Virus record (IMG/VR): IMGVR_UViG_3300028883_000036 | Coordinates: 1 to 64,000 of that record | Strand: one strand, 5' to 3' | Source: a virus | DNA length: 64,000 nucleotides | In this document: piece after piece, positions 11,882-52,781 of the stretch | Position numbering within the stretch: position 1 is the stretch's first letter | Layout of the letters: each line of letters opens with the position of its first letter | Made by a program: the position numbers and the translations under genes | Notes under the pieces: model-generated | What the model was told of the DNA's origin: nothing | Databases searched by the model: none | The model's input: only the letters and a program-made list of their open reading frames with translations

Positions 11882-11914
11882 GACAAAAATTGTCAGTGAT
11901 TGACAAAAATTGTC
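11882..11914 (+). repeat. Two GACAAAAATTGTC palindromes in the divergent control region
   Basis: Copies at 11882-11894 and 11902-11914 are spaced 20 bases, or two helical turns, apart. Each is GACAA-N3-TTGTC followed by AGT. The same palindrome occurs at 23545-23557. The region 11843-12069 holds no other supported gene. It probably contains the rightward promoter and could be an operator or replication-initiator site. Confidence 0.65.
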
Positions 11915-12069
11915 AGTAATTCTATTTATATTTTTAAGTTTAAAAAATCATGATATTGTAAATGTCTGTTTTGTTTACTAAAAAAAATTAATAAATTATA
12001 TATTTTTTGGTATGATGATTGCTTACTATATATGGTATGACAACACAAACAACCATAAAGGAAAATAAA

Positions 12070-13408: not shown

Positions 13409-13606
13409 ATGGTAAAAAGCATATTTCTGAGCATGGGAGAAGAACTTAAAATATTGCATGATCGTATTATGAAGGAAAGAATGAAAGAAAAATTATATAA
13501 CTGGTTTTCCTTGAATGTCAGTGGATTTAAGATGCTTTCAATGGATGAAAGAGGAAAATTGATAACTGATGTTATCGAAACTTTTAAAAAATATGATATT
13601 CTTTAG
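13409..13606 (+). CDS. Hypothetical protein, 65 aa
   Basis: A mostly helical, basic, soluble protein; not recognised. AGGGAG precedes the ATG, just after the consensus promoter. It ends with TAG, and the next gene's ATG (13622) is in the same frame with no other stop between, so suppression of the amber codon would fuse the two. Confidence 0.6.
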   Translation: MVKSIFLSMGEELKILHDRIMKERMKEKLYNWFSLNVSGFKMLSMDERGKLITDVIETFKKYDIL

Positions 13607-13621
13607 AAAAAGGAAGAAAAA

Positions 13622-14131
13622 ATGAAAATTAAAATTATGAATGGTATAATGTTTATTTTATGTTTGATTATATCAATTATATTTTTAATTGAATCAAAAG
13701 AATTATGGGCTAGATTATTTATGGTTTTGTGGATTATTGCTCAATGGTGGGTATTTGATATGAGCAAATTGTTTAAAAAGTTGCTCAACAAACCAACAGT
13801 AAAAATACTAGATGATTTTGTTGAAATAAAACAAAAAATAGATAAAGATTTGACACTTGAGGCAAGAATATCAATGCCTGATTTTAGTAAAAAACCAACT
13901 GATGAGCAAGTGAATTTATATTATAAAATGTATTTAAAAAAGAGAGAGTGTGATGATGAATGGACTACACATGAACCTATAATTCTTAATGAATTTAAAT
14001 TATTAAAGCATGAAATAATGTATGCTATGTCATGTGATGCTTTTATGGGGGGATTTAATAGTCCACCAACTATGATAAGATTTAATAATTATGAATCTAT
14101 GGTAAAAAAGGAAGAAAAAAATGAAAATTAA
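13622..14131 (+). CDS. Membrane-anchored hypothetical protein, 169 aa
   Basis: Two hydrophobic segments (about residues 5-23 and 29-47) form a hairpin anchor. The remaining 115 residues are a charged, helical cytoplasmic domain. AAGGAAG precedes the ATG. Its last bases overlap the next gene. Not recognised. Confidence 0.6.
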   Translation: MKIKIMNGIMFILCLIISIIFLIESKELWARLFMVLWIIAQWWVFDMSKLFKKLLNKPTVKILDDFVEIKQKIDKDLTLEARISMPDFSKKPTDEQVNLYYKMYLKKRECDDEWTTHEPIILNEFKLLKHEIMYAMSCDAFMGGFNSPPTMIRFNNYESMVKKEEKNEN

Positions 14132-14291: not shown

Positions 14292-15162
14292 ACGTAAAAT
14301 GACAGATAAAGAAAAAATTGCTGCTAAAAATAAAAAAATATGGAAAGATGCTGTTTCTTCATACAAAAGACAAATGAATTCAGACTATGAAGAATGCATG
14401 AATGCCATTAATCGTGGAGCAGTTAGTACTCCCACATATACATATGATGTAGGAGATAGAGTTATATTTGGTGCTTTTGATTATACAACTATTCTTGAAA
14501 AATTTGATAATGGAAAATATTATAAAACATTTGAAATAACAAAGAATATTGCATATGGTAAATATATGGGGGAAAAATATCGTTTTGGTTATCGACTATG
14601 GACAGAATTAAGACCATATAGCACCAATGATGATAATATTCCTAAATTGAGAGAAAATGAAGATATTAAATTTAATTATGGTCAAAGAGATATACAATCT
14701 TTGATATATCAGTACTATGGTGGTAAAGCATCTGGTATTGACATGGAACCTGATTACCAAAGAGAATTAGTATGGAATGAATCTCAAAAAGTAGCTCTTA
14801 TTGATTCAATTTATAAAAATATTGATATTGGAAAATTTACTTTTATTAAAAGAAAATATGATCCGAATGATCATTTTCATCTTGAAGTATTAGATGGTAA
14901 ACAAAGGATTAAAGCTATATTGGATTTCTATGAATGTAGAATTAAATATAAAGGTTTTACATTTAATGAAATGAATTGGAGAGATCAATATCATTTCAGA
15001 GGATACCATATAAATTGGGCTGAAACTGATCATTTGACTGATGAACAAAAATATAGGTATTTTTTGAAACTGAATACAGGTGGTGTTCCAATACCTGAAG
15101 ATCATATTAAAAAGGTAAGGGAACTATGGTTAAATTCTAAACTACAAGGATTTGAAAAATGA
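14284..15162 (+). CDS. DUF262 (ParB/GmrS-like) domain protein, 292 aa
   Basis: The C-terminal two thirds match DUF262: DYQRELVWNESQKVALIDSI (about 158-177), a strand FTFIKRKY and the catalytic-type motif LEVLDGKQRIKAI (about 201-213, with DGxQR). In GmrSD-like type IV restriction systems DUF262 hydrolyses NTPs and drives a nuclease; here the nuclease half is absent. The N-terminal 100 residues are basic and unrecognised. It is coupled to the RNA ligase gene by a four-base overlap. A phage copy could serve as a decoy or inhibitor, or have an unrelated role. Confidence 0.8.
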   Translation: MGRRKMTDKEKIAAKNKKIWKDAVSSYKRQMNSDYEECMNAINRGAVSTPTYTYDVGDRVIFGAFDYTTILEKFDNGKYYKTFEITKNIAYGKYMGEKYRFGYRLWTELRPYSTNDDNIPKLRENEDIKFNYGQRDIQSLIYQYYGGKASGIDMEPDYQRELVWNESQKVALIDSIYKNIDIGKFTFIKRKYDPNDHFHLEVLDGKQRIKAILDFYECRIKYKGFTFNEMNWRDQYHFRGYHINWAETDHLTDEQKYRYFLKLNTGGVPIPEDHIKKVRELWLNSKLQGFEK

Positions 15163-16442
15163 AATTTAAAAAACCAAAAAATGAAAATTATGCTGCTACT
15201 ATAGTAGTAATTAAAAATGTAATTGAACTTGAAGGATGTGATAATATTCAAGGAACTATTATCTTTGGAAATCATGTTATAATTGGTAAAGATGTTTCTG
15301 TAGGAAACAAAGGAGTTTTCTTTCCTGCGGAAACTCAATTGAGTCATGAATATGCTTATGAAAATAATCTTTATAGACATGCTGAACTTAATAAAGATAA
15401 AGAAAAAAAAGGTTATATAGAAGATAATAGAAGAATCAGAACTATGAAACTAAGAGGTAATAAATCTTGTGGTTTATTTATGCCTCTTTCTTCTCTTGCA
15501 ACATTTCTTGATAAATATCAACTTATTGAAGAAGGGGATACTTTTGATGAAATCAATACTATTCCTATTTGTAACAAATATATTGTGAAGAAAAAGAATA
15601 GCCAAGGACAAAATAAAAAGAAAAAAGCAAAAAAGATTTCCAAATTGCTTGATAATCAATTTAGATTTCATCAAGATACTTCTAATTTAGGAAAAAATGC
15701 TCATAAATTTAAATCTGATGATTTAATAAGCATTACCTATAAAATACATGGTACATCTACTATTTCTTCTAAAATTCTATGTAAAAAGAAAATCAATTGG
15801 TTTTATAAACTTCTTAGATTTTTTAAAGTAAAAATAGTAGATTTTGAATATGATAATATCTATTCTTCTAGAAAAGTTATTAAAAATGATGATATGAATG
15901 AAGGGAAGAATAGTTTTTATAATGTAGATATTTGGGGATTAGCAAATAAAGTATTGAATGAATATCTACTTGATGGTATGACTATCTATGCAGAAATTGT
16001 TGGATATCTACCTACTGGTGCTTATATTCAAAAACCATTTGATTATGGATGTAAAGATAATACTTTTGAAGTATATATATATCGTATTACCTATACAAAT
16101 TCTTCTGGAAATGTATTTGAATTTTCTTGGAAGCAATTAAAAGATTGGTGCAATGATCGTGGGCTAAAACATGTTCCTGAATTATTTTATGGTCCAGTAA
16201 GAGATGTTCTTAGATATGGAGATAAATTTGAATCTCTTGCTGATGATTTAATTGAATCTTTGAGAGATGAATATCTTGAACAAGATTGCTGGATGTGTAA
16301 AAATAAAGTACCAGCAGAAGGAATTGTAATAAGAAAAGAATGCAATGATTTTGAAGCATATAAATTCAAAAGTTTTAAATTTCTTGAATTTGAAACTAAA
16401 AAACTTGACAAAGGTGAAAGTGATATAGAAGAAGAAAATTAA
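15159..16442 (+). CDS. ATP-dependent RNA ligase, DRB0094/Rnl5 type
   Basis: A 427-residue protein. Residues 1-110 match the N-terminal OB-fold part of the DRB0094 (Deinococcus RNA ligase) family. The nucleotidyl-transferase domain follows, with motif I KIHGT (K195 would carry AMP), a glutamate motif EIVG near residue 280, motif IV EGIVIR near 387-392 and motif V YKFKS near 402-406. The family seals 3'-OH/5'-phosphate ends in nicked RNA. A Lys-rich insert lies near 146-165. With the kinase at 10730-11152 and RtcB, the phage can in principle join both major kinds of RNA breaks. Confidence 0.88.
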   Translation: MKFKKPKNENYAATIVVIKNVIELEGCDNIQGTIIFGNHVIIGKDVSVGNKGVFFPAETQLSHEYAYENNLYRHAELNKDKEKKGYIEDNRRIRTMKLRGNKSCGLFMPLSSLATFLDKYQLIEEGDTFDEINTIPICNKYIVKKKNSQGQNKKKKAKKISKLLDNQFRFHQDTSNLGKNAHKFKSDDLISITYKIHGTSTISSKILCKKKINWFYKLLRFFKVKIVDFEYDNIYSSRKVIKNDDMNEGKNSFYNVDIWGLANKVLNEYLLDGMTIYAEIVGYLPTGAYIQKPFDYGCKDNTFEVYIYRITYTNSSGNVFEFSWKQLKDWCNDRGLKHVPELFYGPVRDVLRYGDKFESLADDLIESLRDEYLEQDCWMCKNKVPAEGIVIRKECNDFEAYKFKSFKFLEFETKKLDKGESDIEEEN

Positions 16443-16735: not shown

Positions 16736-17077
16736 ATGGGATTAATTCAAGATGGAGATTTTACAATATCTTACAATGAATGGAATGATGCAACAGTATA
16801 TCATATTCCCACAAAAACAACTTTTGTTGGATGTGGAACAAATGATAGAGCTAAAAATTTATCTGTTGCTTTGGATGCTATGGAAAGAATTATTTATCAA
16901 AAAAATAAATGTAAAACTCCACATGAAAGATGGATTGAATTAAAAAAGAATTTCATTGATGATATTGTAAAAAAAATATATGAAATAGATGAAGATCATA
17001 ATTCAAATCTTGATTTTGAACCTGATTGGTGGGTTGAGATGATTAACTTTTGCACTAAATTAAGGAGAATGAAATAA
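16736..17077 (+). CDS. Hypothetical protein, 113 aa
   Basis: A soluble protein that begins with predicted strands (FTISYNEWNDATVYHIPTK) followed by helices. GAAAGGA precedes the ATG. Its TAA overlaps the start of the next gene. Not recognised. Confidence 0.6.
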   Translation: MGLIQDGDFTISYNEWNDATVYHIPTKTTFVGCGTNDRAKNLSVALDAMERIIYQKNKCKTPHERWIELKKNFIDDIVKKIYEIDEDHNSNLDFEPDWWVEMINFCTKLRRMK

Positions 17078-17292
17078 TGAAATTGACTCTTGATAAAATA
17101 ATTAAAAAATTAAAAACAATAGAGACAAATTTCAATAATACCGATGATCCAACTAAAAGATATGCATTACTTCAGGCATTAAATCATATAGGTGAAAAGG
17201 AAATTCCGTTTCATGGATATTGGGAAGATGCATATCTAAAATCAATGTTAAAGGAACATGGTGCTGATCCTGAAGTTAAAAAATATGAATAG
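17077..17292 (+). CDS. Hypothetical helical protein, 71 aa
   Basis: A Lys/Glu-rich helical protein. It ends in TAG, and nine bases later, in the same frame, starts the DUF3307 membrane protein. An amber-suppressing tRNA (the phage has one) would make a fusion of the two. The downstream gene has its own weak ribosome-binding site (AGGAA), so ordinary termination and restart is equally possible. Confidence 0.6.
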   Translation: MKLTLDKIIKKLKTIETNFNNTDDPTKRYALLQALNHIGEKEIPFHGYWEDAYLKSMLKEHGADPEVKKYE

Positions 17293-17301
17293 GAAATAAA
17301 A

Positions 17302-17625
17302 ATGAATATAATATTAATATTTTGGTTACATTTTATAGCTGATTTTTTCTTACAATCAGAATATATGGCTATAAATAAAAATAAAAATAATATGGCACTT
17401 TCTTATCATTGTGCTGTATATTGTATTCCTTTTTTATTATTAGGATTTAAATATTCTATTCTTGCTGGTCTATTACATTTTCCTGTTGATTATATTACTT
17501 CAAAAATAACTCATACATTATATGATAATAAAGAATATCATTGGTTTTTTGTTGTAATTGGATTTGATCAAGCTATTCATATGACAGTTTTAGTATTAAT
17601 GGCAAAAATATTAGGAATACTTTAA
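17302..17625 (+). CDS. DUF3307 family membrane protein, 107 aa
   Basis: A polytopic membrane protein with the family's signatures: [15 protein letters not shown] near the N-terminus (about 9-23), a conserved His/Asp pair in [10 protein letters not shown] (about 59-68) and FDQAIHM near 92-98. DUF3307 proteins occur in bacteria and phages with unknown function. Three to four membrane segments are visible. Confidence 0.8.
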
Positions 17626-19521: not shown

Positions 19522-19746
19522 ATGCCTATAGTTATATGTAAAGGATGTGGAAAAAAAACTAATACAGCATGTAGTAAATTTAATAGAGGAAAACCACCTA
19601 ATGAATGTTATGCTGCATATGATGATAAAAATAAAAAATGGATAAAAGGTTGTGGATTTGAAAATGCTAGTAATTTTGAGAAAGCATTTGCAATGCATCT
19701 TATTACAAAAAAATCAATTTCTTATTTTTTAAGAGGATCTGGATAA
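19522..19746 (+). CDS. Small zinc-binding protein, 74 aa
   Basis: CKGCGKK near residues 6-12, C18, C29 and C43 suggest a zinc ribbon-like fold. CAAGGAG precedes the ATG. It ends one base into the RtcB gene (TAATG), so the two are translationally coupled. It may be an accessory to RtcB, but no family was recognised. Confidence 0.65.
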   Translation: MPIVICKGCGKKTNTACSKFNRGKPPNECYAAYDDKNKKWIKGCGFENASNFEKAFAMHLITKKSISYFLRGSG

Positions 19747-20945
19747 TGAAATTTAATAAAAACTTTAATGTATTTAGTCATGCTTATTTTGGTAATGGGC
19801 AAAAGTTAAATGTACCTATTAAATTGTTTCTATCTGAAGTAGAAGATGGGGCAATGTTCCAAATGGATCATTTAGCTCAATTACCTTTTGTATTTCATCA
19901 TGTAGCAGGAATGCCTGATATGCATCAAGGATATGGTATGCCTATTGGTGGTGTAATGGCTACTAAAGAATATATAGTGCCTAATGCTGTAGGTATGGAT
20001 ATTGGATGTGGTATGTGTAGTATTCAAACTTCTTTCACTGAAATTGATAAACCTATTTTAAAGAAGATAATGGGGGATATTAGAAAACTTATTCCTGTTG
20101 GTTTTAAACATAATGAACATTCTCAAAAAGGTATGCCTATAAATTATAATCTTTCTTTACCAATTATAGATGAAAATTATTCTTCTGCTCAAAAACAATT
20201 GGGAACTCTTGGTGGTGGAAATCATTTCATTGAAATTCAAAAAGGAGATGATGGATTTATTTATATAATGATTCATTCTGGAAGTAGAAACTTAGGAGCA
20301 AAAGTAGCTACTCATTATAATAAAGTAGCTGTTGATTTAAATGAAAAATGGCATAGTAAAGTTCCTAAAAATTGGCAATTAGCATATCTACCTTTTCATG
20401 ATACTGAAGGACAATCTTATTTTGAAGAAATGAAATACTGTTGTGATTTTGCATTAGCAAATAGAAAACTAATGATGGATAGAGTTAAAGAAGCAATGAC
20501 TAACCATCTTGATATTGATTTTTGGGAAGATACTTTTATAAACATTCATCATAACTATGCTGCTATAGAAAATCATTTTGGAAAAAATGTTTTAGTACAT
20601 AGAAAAGGTGCTACTAGAGCATATAAAGGAGAACTTGGTATTATTCCAGGGAGTCAAGGAACATATAGCTATATTGTAGAAGGTAAAGGATATGAAGATA
20701 GTTTCAAATCATGTAGTCATGGTGCTGGAAGATTAATGAGTAGAAGTAGAGCTAAAAAAGAACTTAATCTTGCACTTGAAATCAAAAAACTTGATGATCA
20801 AGGTATTGTTCACGGTATTAGACATATCAGTGATTTGGATGAAGCTAGTGGTGCATATAAAGATATTGATGATGTTATGCTTAATCAAATCAAACTTGTT
20901 ATGATAAAAAAAGAACTAAAACCTATTGCAGTAGTAAAAGGATAG
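19746..20945 (+). CDS. rtcB: RtcB RNA ligase
   Basis: A 399-residue RtcB, slightly shorter than most bacterial forms. Conserved signatures are present: GMDIGCGM with the metal-binding C88 (about 83-90), LGGGNHFIEI, MIHSGSRNLG, NIHHNYAA, VHRKGATRA, GSQGTYSY and SCSHGAGR with the guanylated histidine H325. RtcB joins 2',3'-cyclic-phosphate (or 3'-phosphate) ends to 5'-OH ends using GTP and Mn2+, as in tRNA splicing and repair. It lies in an operon with a RlaP-like protein. The phage's permuted tRNA would need such a ligase. Confidence 0.95.
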   Translation: MKFNKNFNVFSHAYFGNGQKLNVPIKLFLSEVEDGAMFQMDHLAQLPFVFHHVAGMPDMHQGYGMPIGGVMATKEYIVPNAVGMDIGCGMCSIQTSFTEIDKPILKKIMGDIRKLIPVGFKHNEHSQKGMPINYNLSLPIIDENYSSAQKQLGTLGGGNHFIEIQKGDDGFIYIMIHSGSRNLGAKVATHYNKVAVDLNEKWHSKVPKNWQLAYLPFHDTEGQSYFEEMKYCCDFALANRKLMMDRVKEAMTNHLDIDFWEDTFINIHHNYAAIENHFGKNVLVHRKGATRAYKGELGIIPGSQGTYSYIVEGKGYEDSFKSCSHGAGRLMSRSRAKKELNLALEIKKLDDQGIVHGIRHISDLDEASGAYKDIDDVMLNQIKLVMIKKELKPIAVVKG

Positions 20946-22698: not shown

Positions 22699-22776
22699 AT
22701 GATGCCATTTCAATAGATAGTAAGAGGACCACCTTTTTTTATTGTACACACAACTACAATTTATAATAAAATATAA
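22699..22776 (+). other. Short leader frame with in-frame TAG at codon 6
   Basis: A strong AAAGGAG lies eight bases before ATG-ATG. The frame reads MMPFQ, then TAG (22714-22716), then continues through 19 sense codons to TAA at 22774. Without suppression it makes a five-residue peptide; with the phage amber suppressor tRNA (23421-23496) it would make a 25-residue one. It follows a good promoter and precedes the gene at 22796. Candidate leader peptide that senses suppression. Confidence 0.45.
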
Positions 22777-22795
22777 TAAAAAAAGGAGACAAAAA

Positions 22796-23098
22796 ATGAA
22801 ATTCAAAGAATTTAAAAATCAAATCAAAGAAGAACAAAAGCAATTAGCAAATCAAATTAAAAATTTTAAAAAAGAACGAAAAAAAACATCTACAGGCTAT
22901 ATATCAGGTTTAGATCAAAAAAGATCTACTTATAGACATAAACATATTGTTTACTGTCAATTATTTAATAACACTCCCTATAAACAAATAGAAAGAAGTT
23001 GTCATGAATGCCCAAATCAATATATACTTGACAGATATACAAAAGAATGGTATAAAGTATTTGAACAATTTGAACATGAAGAAAGGATTGCTGTATGA
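22796..23098 (+). CDS. Hypothetical basic protein, 100 aa
   Basis: A Lys-rich helical N-terminal half (about 1-32), then a region with His and Cys (HKHIVYCQ, SCHECPNQ) that may bind zinc. AAAAGGAG precedes the ATG. Its TGA overlaps the ATG of the next frame (23095). Not recognised. Confidence 0.6.
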   Translation: MKFKEFKNQIKEEQKQLANQIKNFKKERKKTSTGYISGLDQKRSTYRHKHIVYCQLFNNTPYKQIERSCHECPNQYILDRYTKEWYKVFEQFEHEERIAV

Positions 23099-23142
23099 AA
23101 AATAAAAATTGGGGTCAAAAAAATGGCTCAACATAGACTAAA
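23095..23142 (+). other. Amber-interrupted 5' extension of the Pth2-like gene
   Basis: An ATG at 23095, with AAAGGA eight bases upstream, opens 13 codons (MKNKNWGQKNGST) ending in TAG (23134-23136). Three codons later, in the same frame, is the ATG of the Pth2-like protein, which has no ribosome-binding site of its own. Suppression by the nearby tRNA would give one longer protein; alternatively ribosomes stop at TAG and restart nine bases downstream. Confidence 0.55.
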
Positions 23143-23427
23143 ATGTATGTTATAATCAGAAAAGATATACCTAAAATTCATCAAGCTGTTCAAGGTGGAC
23201 ATGCTTTAGCGGAATATCTTTTAAATGAATCAACATCTTGGACTAACGGAACTTTAATCTATTTGGGTATTAAAGGACTAAATCAGATTGAGAATTTAAA
23301 ATATAAATTTGATTCAGAAGGGATACCTTATAGAGAGTTTAGAGAACCTGATCTTGATAATCAAATAACGTCAATAGCAACAGATACAAAAAATAAGTAT
23401 ATAAAAAAACTAAACTTATTGGCTTGA
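23143..23427 (+). CDS. Peptidyl-tRNA hydrolase 2 (Pth2)-like protein, 94 aa
   Basis: A start MYVIIRKDIPKIHQAVQGGHALAEYL (the Pth2 pattern of a strand, a basic residue and a helix with QxGHA) and a C-terminal EPDLDNQITSIATD that matches the family's catalytic Asp/Thr segment. Pth2 cleaves stalled peptidyl-tRNA. It lacks its own ribosome-binding site and is probably made through the upstream frame at 23095. The TGA stop lies within the first seven bases of the suppressor tRNA. Confidence 0.75.
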   Translation: MYVIIRKDIPKIHQAVQGGHALAEYLLNESTSWTNGTLIYLGIKGLNQIENLKYKFDSEGIPYREFREPDLDNQITSIATDTKNKYIKKLNLLA

Positions 23428-23496
23428 TAGCTCAACGGCAGAGCAGGGAACTCTAAATTCCTGTTAGTGTAGGTTCAAATCCTATTCAAGCCACCA
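23421..23496 (+). tRNA. Amber suppressor tRNA (CTA)
   Basis: A complete cloverleaf: acceptor GGCTTGA/TCAAGCC, A73, CCA encoded, D arm GCTC..GAGC, anticodon stem GGGAA/TTCCT with loop CTCTAAA, T loop TTCAAAT. The CTA anticodon reads UAG. Its amino acid cannot be told from sequence alone. TAG is still used as a normal stop in many genes here, so this is suppression rather than full recoding, at least in this block. Confidence 0.93.
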
Positions 23497-23508
23497 AATC
23501 AAAAAAGG

Positions 23509-23569
23509 TATGGGAAAATATTGTGACAATTTTTGACAAACTTTGACAATTTTTGTCACAATTCCCATA
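23509..23569 (+). promoter_or_regulatory. Large inverted repeat with GACAATTTTTGTC palindrome
   Basis: Arms TATGGGAA and TTCCCATA flank inner arms TTGTGACAA and TTGTCACAA, with three TTTGACAA-like repeats in the middle. The palindrome at 23545-23557 is the same 13-base sequence found twice at 11882-11914. It lies upstream of the promoter at 23631 and is a likely operator, or a replication-protein site. Confidence 0.65.
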
Positions 23570-23630
23570 ACCTCAAAAATACTAAAATCTATAAACCCCT
23601 AAAATCATTCAAATAATTTTTTTTGGTACT

Positions 23631-51638: not shown

Positions 51639-52571
51639 TTACATTTGATTTAAAATTGTTAAAACATTTTTAATTCTAATTTTACTTGAATGCATTTGTT
51701 GTATATAATTAAATGCATTTTCTCTCATTTTAGAAGTATCTTTATTCTTCCATTCATTCCATAATTTTTTAACTTGATTTGGATTATTATAACTATTGAA
51801 AGGAACATATAAATCATCTGGAATAAAATCATCCATTCCATTGAACTTCCTCATAATCATAAATGCTCCTGTTCCAAGATATTGAAAAGGTCTAACATCC
51901 ATATAACCAGGAATTTCATAACCAACACATAAACCTAAAATACATTTAGCTGAAACACTTAATTCTGGTGTTCTTTTTCTTAAATCTTGTCCTGATTGAG
52001 TCTTAAATATTTTTATAGGCATTATTTTTTGAAGGGATTCTATGAATTCTGCTCTATTATCTGCCCATCCTTGTCTATGAGCACCAGGACTACCAGTAAA
52101 TACAGGTATATTAAAGGCCAAATCAGAAGCAGGAGCAGACATTTTATCATAAGTAATAGATGAGTATGGACAAAAGAAAACAGGTATTTTAAAAGCACTC
52201 TGACAGTTTTTAACCATTGGATATGATCCTACCAAAGCAAGATCAAATACCCCTCTTAAATCTCCCATATATCTATCATGGGTTCTAGCATCTGAGCATG
52301 TATGGATAATTTTTGTATCAATATTATTTTTTATATCTTTAAAAAATTGCAATACTGTATTTACTGGATGAATATGAGAATGAAAACTCAAATGAGTAAA
52401 TATAAAATCAGGATTATAATCTAATATTCTTTTTTTAATGATATTTAATGTATTTGATTTATAATCAATCTCAAGAACATCAACATTATTCAATTTTAAT
52501 CCTTGTTTAAATGTTAAAACAAACCAACTATATCCTAATTTGGTATTACCTAATATAACTGCTTTTTTCAT
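51639..52571 (-). CDS. Glycosyltransferase-like protein, 310 aa
   Basis: A GT-B type: VILGNTKLGYSWFV, FTHLSFHSHIHPVNTVL, then HRQGWADNRAEF and RPFQYLGTGAFMIMRKFN (near 220-237), a CgeB-like C-terminal domain. It probably acts in the same pathway as its neighbours. Confidence 0.7.
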   Translation of the reverse strand: MKKAVILGNTKLGYSWFVLTFKQGLKLNNVDVLEIDYKSNTLNIIKKRILDYNPDFIFTHLSFHSHIHPVNTVLQFFKDIKNNIDTKIIHTCSDARTHDRYMGDLRGVFDLALVGSYPMVKNCQSAFKIPVFFCPYSSITYDKMSAPASDLAFNIPVFTGSPGAHRQGWADNRAEFIESLQKIMPIKIFKTQSGQDLRKRTPELSVSAKCILGLCVGYEIPGYMDVRPFQYLGTGAFMIMRKFNGMDDFIPDDLYVPFNSYNNPNQVKKLWNEWKNKDTSKMRENAFNYIQQMHSSKIRIKNVLTILNQM

Positions 52572-52580
52572 ATTATTCTC

Positions 52581-52781
52581 CTAATCATTATACATATACA
52601 AAGAACAATCATCATTATCTCTTGGATCATATTCTTCCCAATCATTTGCATTTATCCATTCTTTAGGAACTCTACTAATAATTGATTCTGTATGATTTTT
52701 CCAAAATTTTACTTTTGGATAAGATGTTCTTCTTACAGCAGATCTAACATGACACCATTCAATAGCTTCATTTAATTTCAT
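52581..52781 (-). CDS. Hypothetical protein, 66 aa
   Basis: A small Trp-rich protein (AVRRTSYPKVKFW, EWINANDWEEYDP) resembling the many small phage proteins with a W-x-x-x-DWE end. Not assigned. Confidence 0.55.
   Translation of the reverse strand: MKLNEAIEWCHVRSAVRRTSYPKVKFWKNHTESIISRVPKEWINANDWEEYDPRDNDDCSLYMYND

What the first reader, a model, noticed from the sequence alone, without database searches (positions are those of the whole stretch)
23095..23496. Amber suppressor tRNA next to a Pth2-like gene whose only good start is separated by an in-frame TAG
Seen: ATG 23095 has AAAGGA upstream; 13 codons later TAG (23134) is in frame with ATG 23143 of the Pth2-like protein, which lacks a ribosome-binding site. 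The tRNA with anticodon CTA begins inside the Pth2 stop codon. Inference: the suppressor controls synthesis of an N-terminally extended Pth2, a feedback loop in tRNA metabolism. Termination-reinitiation is an alternative.
Basis: partly seen in the sequence, partly recalled or inferred. Interest (0 to 1): 0.72.

Follow-up and report, generated by a model that had tools for sequence, protein, structure and literature searches.

The report
Phage suppressor tRNA gates partner gene
Many unrelated phages that use the normal genetic code carry a tRNA that reads the stop codon UAG next to a small gene (Pth2, a tRNA-recycling enzyme) which is itself interrupted by a UAG near its start, so the tRNA probably switches its own partner gene on; this gives a testable answer to what these 'idle' phage suppressor tRNAs are for.

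Summary
In a 107,655-base phage record, ATG 23095 (good ribosome-binding site, overlapping the upstream gene's stop) runs 13 codons into TAG 23134. After TAG ACT AAA comes ATG 23143 of a PTH2-fold protein, whose 3' end overlaps a well-formed tRNA-CUA. Alone this could be chance. Comparison shows it is not. Among 173 non-redundant relatives (<80% identity), nearly all in standard-code phages, 101 have a TAG in the pth2 reading frame (91 N-terminal, usually codon 3; 10 internal). An amber with an ATG just before it and no ATG/GTG after it occurs 84 times, against 3 for TAA+TGA. The base after the TAG is a purine in 82/84. A tRNA-CUA lies within 5 kb on the same strand in 136/173 and on the opposite strand in 1; it is absent from 80 control RtcB loci. 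Isolated phages (Serratia BF, Cronobacter GAP32, Acinetobacter ME3, Tenacibaculum pT24, several mycobacteriophages) have it. Best reading: a dedicated phage suppressor tRNA gates synthesis of its own partner, a peptidyl-tRNA hydrolase. Published phage papers cannot explain such 'non-functioning' suppressor tRNAs. In the window itself, reinitiation at ATG 23143 remains possible. No experiment shows readthrough yet.

The parts
22796..23098 (+). upX: conserved ~100-aa protein of unknown function (YRHxHIAYCxxxxxxxxxIE motif), first gene of the conserved upX-pth2-tRNA order
   Evidence: homologues within 600 nt upstream of pth2 in 57 of 173 loci, 78 loci in all; no Pfam match
23082..23087 (+). AAAGGA ribosome-binding site for ATG 23095
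   Evidence: sequence; SD energy -5.4, equal to the median of real ORFs
23095..23427 (+). pth2 reading frame through the TAG (110 codons plus TGA): MKNKNWGQKNGST*TKMYVIIRKD...
   Evidence: AlphaFold of the read-through form pLDDT 92.5, residues 1-15 disordered
23134..23136 (+). in-frame TAG, codon 14, followed by A (ACT)
   Evidence: in-frame TAG conserved in 101 of 173 relatives; same place in L030
23143..23427 (+). Pth2-like core (94 aa) with its own possible start ATG 23143, no ribosome-binding site
   Evidence: PTH2 fold: Foldseek 2zv3 1.2e-6, 3erj 3.2e-5, 1xty, 1q7s; profile against PDB E 1.5e-7
23421..23496 (+). amber suppressor tRNA, anticodon CUA (loop CTCTAAA), class I, CCA encoded; its first 7 nt overlap the end of pth2 including the stop codon
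   Evidence: ARAGORN, Rfam, sequence
23506..23570 (+). imperfect hairpin after the tRNA; probable end of the transcription unit or an operator (role unknown)
   Evidence: fold -26 kcal/mol of 23497-23600; part repeated at 11882-11917 minus; no terminator call

Best explanation
This is a suppressor-tRNA-gated gene. The phage encodes an amber suppressor tRNA (CUA) and, in the same transcription unit, a PTH2-type peptidyl-tRNA hydrolase whose reading frame is broken by UAG soon after the start. Ribosomes that start at ATG 23095 reach UAG; release factor 1 ends translation unless the charged suppressor tRNA reads it. So Pth2 is made in proportion to active suppressor tRNA relative to RF1. Pth2 then frees tRNA from peptidyl-tRNA that drops off the ribosome, a by-product expected when stop codons are suppressed and in early elongation, which matches the dose of the enzyme to the tRNA that creates the need. 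Shown: the anatomy, the TAG-specific conservation, the linkage, the standard code, the PTH2 fold. Inferred: the readthrough itself, the Pth2 activity, and the purpose (dose matching, or delaying Pth2 until the tRNA has accumulated). The TAG seems to serve control, not a special residue: its position varies, internal ones lie at variable columns, and the tRNAs share no amino-acid identity. In the window the tRNA also overlaps the pth2 stop codon, so 5' tRNA processing should remove the stop from that transcript.
For: Linkage: tRNA-CTA within 5 kb on the same strand in 136 of 173 non-redundant pth2 loci, opposite strand 1; in 37 loci CTA is the only tRNA; the first tRNA within 1.5 kb downstream is CTA in 76 of 96. 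In 80 phage RtcB loci (0.93 Mb, 27 with tRNAs): 0 CTA. In-frame TAG in 101/173; nearest stop preceded by a close ATG and followed by no ATG/GTG: TAG 84, TGA 2, TAA 1. TAG is codon 3 in 47 of 94, codon 2-5 in 85. Base after TAG: A 61, G 21, C 2, T 0, while +4U is the readthrough-reducing base (PMC5289835 abstract). Ribosome-binding signal lies before the ATG upstream of the TAG (lower quartile -6.4, against -1.9 after the TAG). Standard code: reading TAG gains no more ORF length than reading TGA except in L101/L102. Of 44 TAG-interrupted conserved sites in the loci 34 are in pth2; the other 10 equal the TGA/TAA background. Isolated phages carry it. L030 requires readthrough at the window's TAG position. 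PTH2 fold.
Against: No expression data. In the window an ATG follows the TAG by two codons, so readthrough is not strictly required there, and TAG at codon 14 is far from the usual codon 2-5. 72 of 173 relatives have no TAG in pth2, though most of these have the tRNA, often abutting the gene, so the TAG is not needed for whatever the pair does. 15 TAG-bearing loci showed no same-strand CTA in the fetched stretch; one of these (L187) has it on the opposite strand and three more elsewhere on the contig; the rest remain without one, including two contigs of about 350 kb. The window protein is below Pfam's PTH2 cut-off and its activity is unknown. The count of 173 includes moderately related sequences, so it is not 173 independent events (26 changes of state on a quick tree).
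Confidence: 0.78

Rival explanations
1. Termination and reinitiation: ATG...TAG is a short upstream ORF coupled to the upstream gene; ribosomes stop at TAG and restart at ATG 23143 (or at a rare start such as ATT in relatives). The tRNA-CUA is a neighbour with another role.
For: In the window ATG 23143 lies 6 nt after the TAG, and the predicted fold needs nothing before residue 16. Mycobacteriophages are annotated from a GTG right after the TAG. ATT follows the TAG in 33 of 84 relatives.
Against: 84 relatives have no ATG/GTG after the TAG; internal TAGs exist; the codon after the TAG also is GTT, GTA, AAC, ACT; L030, the window's close TAG-bearing relative, has no start after the TAG; it does not explain why the stop is TAG and not TAA/TGA, nor the tRNA-CUA linkage.
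Confidence: 0.15
2. General TAG recoding (code 15): these phages read TAG as glutamine throughout and pth2 is one of many genes.
For: Suppressor tRNA-CUA and TAG-to-Gln recoding are known in crAss-like, Lak and other phages (PMC10879173, PMC9523058); L101, L102 and Lak relatives of pth2 exist.
Against: Reading TAG does not lengthen ORFs in these contigs, except L101/L102; only pth2 is interrupted above background; the recoded L101/L102 and Lak-A1 are the ones whose pth2 lacks TAG.
Confidence: 0.03
3. The suppressor tRNA serves another purpose (weakening the host by stop-codon readthrough, or as a decoy for anticodon nucleases); Pth2 is only a helper that clears the peptidyl-tRNA produced, and the TAG in pth2 merely makes the helper depend on the tRNA.
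For: 16 of 173 loci also carry a tmRNA gene, against 0 of 80 controls; pairs without a TAG exist; host effects are proposed by PMC12386605.
Against: Does not contradict gating; it differs only in which partner is primary. No direct evidence for host readthrough.
Confidence: 0.3

Closest known systems
prfB (release factor 2) autoregulation by an in-frame stop near the start
   Same: A translation factor gene carries a premature stop near its 5' end that makes its own synthesis depend on the state of termination (PMC12421855, abstract).
   Different: prfB uses UGA and a +1 frameshift sensed by RF2; here the stop is UAG, read in frame, with a dedicated suppressor tRNA beside the gene, in phages.
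TAG-recoded phages with suppressor tRNAs (code 15; crAss-like, Lak, phAss-1)
   Same: Phage-encoded tRNA-CUA reading in-frame TAG.
   Different: Here the genomes use the standard code, and the conserved interrupted gene is essentially pth2 alone.
'Idle' CUA suppressor tRNAs in standard-code phages (XacN1, zeta crAss-like clade 8, RsoM2USA)
   Same: Same kind of tRNA in the same kind of genome; authors report no target gene (XacN1) or ask why it is kept (zeta crAss-like).
   Different: Here a specific target, pth2, is proposed. XacN1's own pth2 relative (ORF364) has no TAG.
PTH2 peptidyl-tRNA hydrolases of archaea and eukaryotes (PF01981; 2zv3, 3erj, 1xty, 1q7s)
   Same: Fold, and the R.D, Q..HA and C-terminal T motifs by alignment.
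   Different: Shorter; loop before the Q..HA motif shortened; EPD in place of the DAG region; phage-borne; sometimes fused to an HD-like domain (pT24, RAS14, XacN1).

Membership tests
PTH2 peptidyl-tRNA hydrolase (PF01981) | sequence score above the family cut-off | tested here: inconclusive
   Window 15.7 bits against a cut-off of 23; relatives pass: Myrna 34.4, pT24 31.2, L079 25.2; 9 of 13 members of A1 match at E<=0.01
PTH2 peptidyl-tRNA hydrolase (PF01981) | PTH2 fold | tested here: met
   AlphaFold pLDDT 92.5; the Foldseek hits with E<=0.001 are PTH2, Bit1 and structural-genomics relatives of that fold
PTH2 peptidyl-tRNA hydrolase (PF01981) | catalytic residues and hydrolysis of peptidyl-tRNA | not testable with these tools
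   R, D, Q, H and T are near-invariant among phage members, but the Lys-rich loop is shortened; an enzyme assay is needed
programmed UAG readthrough by a phage suppressor tRNA | in-frame UAG with coding on both sides and no alternative start | tested here: inconclusive
   met in 84 relatives and in L030; in the window an ATG follows the UAG
programmed UAG readthrough by a phage suppressor tRNA | intact tRNA-CUA in the same genome | tested here: met
   23421-23496
programmed UAG readthrough by a phage suppressor tRNA | full-length product observed | not testable with these tools
   needs mass spectrometry or ribosome profiling
TAG-recoded (code 15) phage | many genes with internal TAG, higher coding density when TAG is read | tested here: not met
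   window mean ORF 213 to 218 aa, TGA control 228; TAG used as a stop
pyrrolysine system | pylS and a tRNA-Pyl of unusual shape | not tested
   'tRNA-Pyl' is only ARAGORN's label for the CTA anticodon; the tRNA is an ordinary cloverleaf; pylS was not searched for

The most novel reading that the evidence does not exclude
A widespread natural circuit in standard-code phages in which a dedicated nonsense-suppressor tRNA exists to switch on a single partner gene, a peptidyl-tRNA hydrolase carrying a programmed UAG at codon 2-5. This is tRNA-gated gene expression and self-dosing of translation quality control, found from Bacteroidota phages to jumbo enterobacterial phages and mycobacteriophages.
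Probability: 0.68. Interest if true: 0.88.

Novelty: new variant of a known kind. Interest (0 to 1): 0.82.

Why it matters
Suppressor tRNAs turn up in phages that do not recode their genomes, and the authors of such genomes report that they cannot find what the tRNA acts on (PMC5852040) or why 'non-functioning' suppressor tRNAs are kept (PMC12386605). A conserved, TAG-interrupted partner gene beside the tRNA turns that open question into a simple experiment. It would be a natural gene switch made of a tRNA and one codon, it corrects gene annotation in isolated phages (the gene is missed or starts too late), and it points to peptidyl-tRNA recycling as a need created by suppression.

Tried and rejected
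Genome-wide TAG recoding: rejected. Other TAG-linked ORF pairs in the window: 41643/40422 match different PHROGs, so two adjacent genes rather than one; the pairs at 3554-4459, 13409-14131, 17077-17625 and 51639-52781 gave no sign of single interrupted genes. Other conserved genes with TAG near pth2: background level, except the HD-like gene after pth2 in BF/GAP32. A single amino-acid identity for the tRNAs: not found (median pairwise identity 0.64; base 73 is A 68, T 37, G 29, C 11). Amino acid inferred from internal TAG columns: variable columns, no clear residue. DNA search against named phages found only RtcB-gene matches. Searching the literature library (10 searches) found no description of the link; the key recoding paper (Borges 2022) is not held, so prior mention there cannot be excluded.

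Full report
OBSERVATION. The window is bases 1-64000 of a 107,655-base virus record with 27% GC. The ATG at 23095 has AAAGGA seven bases upstream and overlaps the upstream gene's TGA (ATGA). The TAG at 23134 is codon 14. ATG 23143 is in frame and lacks a ribosome-binding site. The tRNA at 23421-23496 has anticodon CUA, a full cloverleaf and an encoded CCA, and its first seven bases cover the end of the pth2 gene including the stop codon.

WHAT THE PROTEIN IS. The core is 94 aa. By sequence the window protein alone only hints at Pfam PTH2 (E 0.018), but its relatives match it clearly, a profile of them matches solved PTH2 chains (E 1.5e-7), and the AlphaFold model (pLDDT 92.5) has PTH2-family structures as its best Foldseek hits. 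The residues encoded before and around the TAG (1-15) are predicted disordered, and the first strand begins at residue 16.

COMPARISON. A search with the window protein gave 17 relatives in viral contigs; 16 of them have a tRNA-CTA in the fetched stretch. Reading upstream of the conserved core showed in-frame TAGs right after the start in many of them. Profile searches brought the set to 271 loci, reduced to 173 at 80% identity. Of these, 101 have a TAG in the pth2 frame, 91 N-terminal (the window included) and 10 internal. In the N-terminal class the TAG is codon 3 in 47 of 94 scored and codon 2-5 in 85. Examples are MK*INK, MTH*NDKTW (Serratia phage BF), MAQ*NEKTW (Cronobacter GAP32), MT*IHENKKHT (Acinetobacter ME3) and MK*ITKNSN (Tenacibaculum pT24).

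CONTROL ON THE STOP CODON. The same configuration (nearest in-frame stop within 20 codons of the core, an ATG at most seven codons before it, no ATG/GTG after it) was counted for all three stops: TAG 84, TGA 2, TAA 1. An all-against-all comparison of conserved genes in the loci, reading each stop in turn, found 34 of 44 TAG-interrupted sites in pth2; the 10 others equal the background seen for TGA (8) and TAA (20) outside pth2. The genomes are standard-code: reading TAG lengthens ORFs no more than reading TGA, except in L101 and L102. Those two, and Lak-A1, have no TAG in pth2.

CONTROL ON THE LINKAGE. A tRNA-CTA lies within 5 kb on the same strand in 136 of 173 loci, on the opposite strand in one; in 37 loci it is the only tRNA. 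Eighty phage loci around relatives of this phage's RtcB gene, 27 of them with tRNAs, have none. Fifteen TAG-bearing loci had no same-strand CTA in the fetched stretch: one has it on the opposite strand, and a search of the contigs with ARAGORN follow-up found it elsewhere in three more. Several of the remaining contigs are short, but two are about 350 kb, so some exceptions are real or use a tRNA that was not recognised.

SIGNS THAT THE TAG IS READ. The base after the TAG is A or G in 82 of 84 and never T; +4U is known to reduce readthrough in bacteria (PMC5289835, abstract). Strong ribosome-binding signals occur before the ATG upstream of the TAG but not just after the TAG. TAG position varies, internal TAGs fall in variable columns, and the tRNAs share neither body sequence nor discriminator base. 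This argues that the codon controls how much protein is made rather than supplying a special residue (inference).

THE WINDOW CASE. The usual family start is ATG-AAR-(L/M)-(Y/F)-V. In the window the ATG position is ACT and a TAG precedes it; in L030 (about 50% identical) it is GAC with a TAG in the same place, and no start follows. This favours readthrough in the window, but ATG 23143 itself could serve as a reinitiation start. I put window-specific readthrough at about 0.6 and family-level gating at about 0.85.

SURROUNDINGS. A conserved ~100-aa protein of unknown function (upX, 22796-23098) directly precedes pth2 in 57 of 173 loci and lies near it in others. In many phages the tRNA begins 0-17 bases after the pth2 stop; in the window it overlaps the stop, so 5' processing of the tRNA would leave a pth2 message without a stop (inference). 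Sixteen loci also hold a tmRNA, against none of 80 controls. In BF and GAP32 the gene after pth2, an HD-like protein with similarity to the CCA-enzyme HD region, also has a conserved in-frame TAG; relatives of it are fused to Pth2 in pT24, RAS14 and XacN1. These neighbours fit a theme of handling failed translation.

MECHANISM. Shown: anatomy, conservation, code, linkage, fold. Inferred: charged suppressor tRNA competes with RF1 at the UAG and sets Pth2 synthesis; Pth2 recycles peptidyl-tRNA. Dissociation of peptidyl-tRNA is frequent in early elongation (PMC10192219), which may be why codon 3 is favoured (speculation). Whether the purpose is dose matching or timing cannot be decided here.

KNOWN OR NEW. 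The nearest precedents are prfB autoregulation and TAG-recoded phages. Literature searches found no report of a Pth2 / UAG / suppressor tRNA link, while two papers state the puzzle it would solve. Borges et al. 2022 is not in the library. I therefore call it a new variant of a known kind: known parts, apparently undescribed circuit.

Noticed in passing
window 22702-22779 (+): Short ORF with a strong ribosome-binding site (AAAGGAG) and an in-frame TAG soon after the start, followed by A (MMPFQ*IVRGPPFFIVHTTTIYNKI), in the same operon; no convincing homologue in the fetched loci.
   Followed up: partly
window 22796-23098 (+): upX, a conserved family without a Pfam match (Y/F-R-H-x-H-I-A-Y-C motif), found next to pth2 in many phages.
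   Followed up: partly
L107 4309-4872 and L108 4309-4872: In Serratia phage BF and Cronobacter GAP32 the gene after pth2 (HD-like, CCA-enzyme-like) has a conserved in-frame TAG (SELDTG*GDP); GenBank annotates only the first 46 codons, and PHROG 26054 is that fragment.
   Followed up: partly
PHROG 34073 and L107 4001-4303: The BF-type pth2 is unannotated in the BF record, and PHROG 34073 covers only residues 27-101 of the core, apparently because of the TAG.
   Followed up: no
window 23506-23570 and 11882-11917 (-): Imperfect inverted repeat with GTGACAATTTTTGACAA / TTTGACAATTTTTGTCAC, partly repeated near 11.9 kb; possible operator or transcript end.
   Followed up: no
16 of 173 pth2 loci, e.g. 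L023 12048-12398, L266 4393-4767: tmRNA genes in the same loci as pth2 and tRNA-CUA; none in 80 control loci.
   Followed up: partly
window 15159-16442, 19746-20945: RNA ligase and RtcB (tRNA-splicing ligase) genes in a phage with at least 13 tRNA genes: a tRNA-repair set.
   Followed up: no
L113 (Prevotella phage Lak-A1), about 1 kb upstream of pth2: ARAGORN reports a tRNA with anticodon TTA (stop-reading) near a pth2 without TAG in this recoded phage.
   Followed up: no
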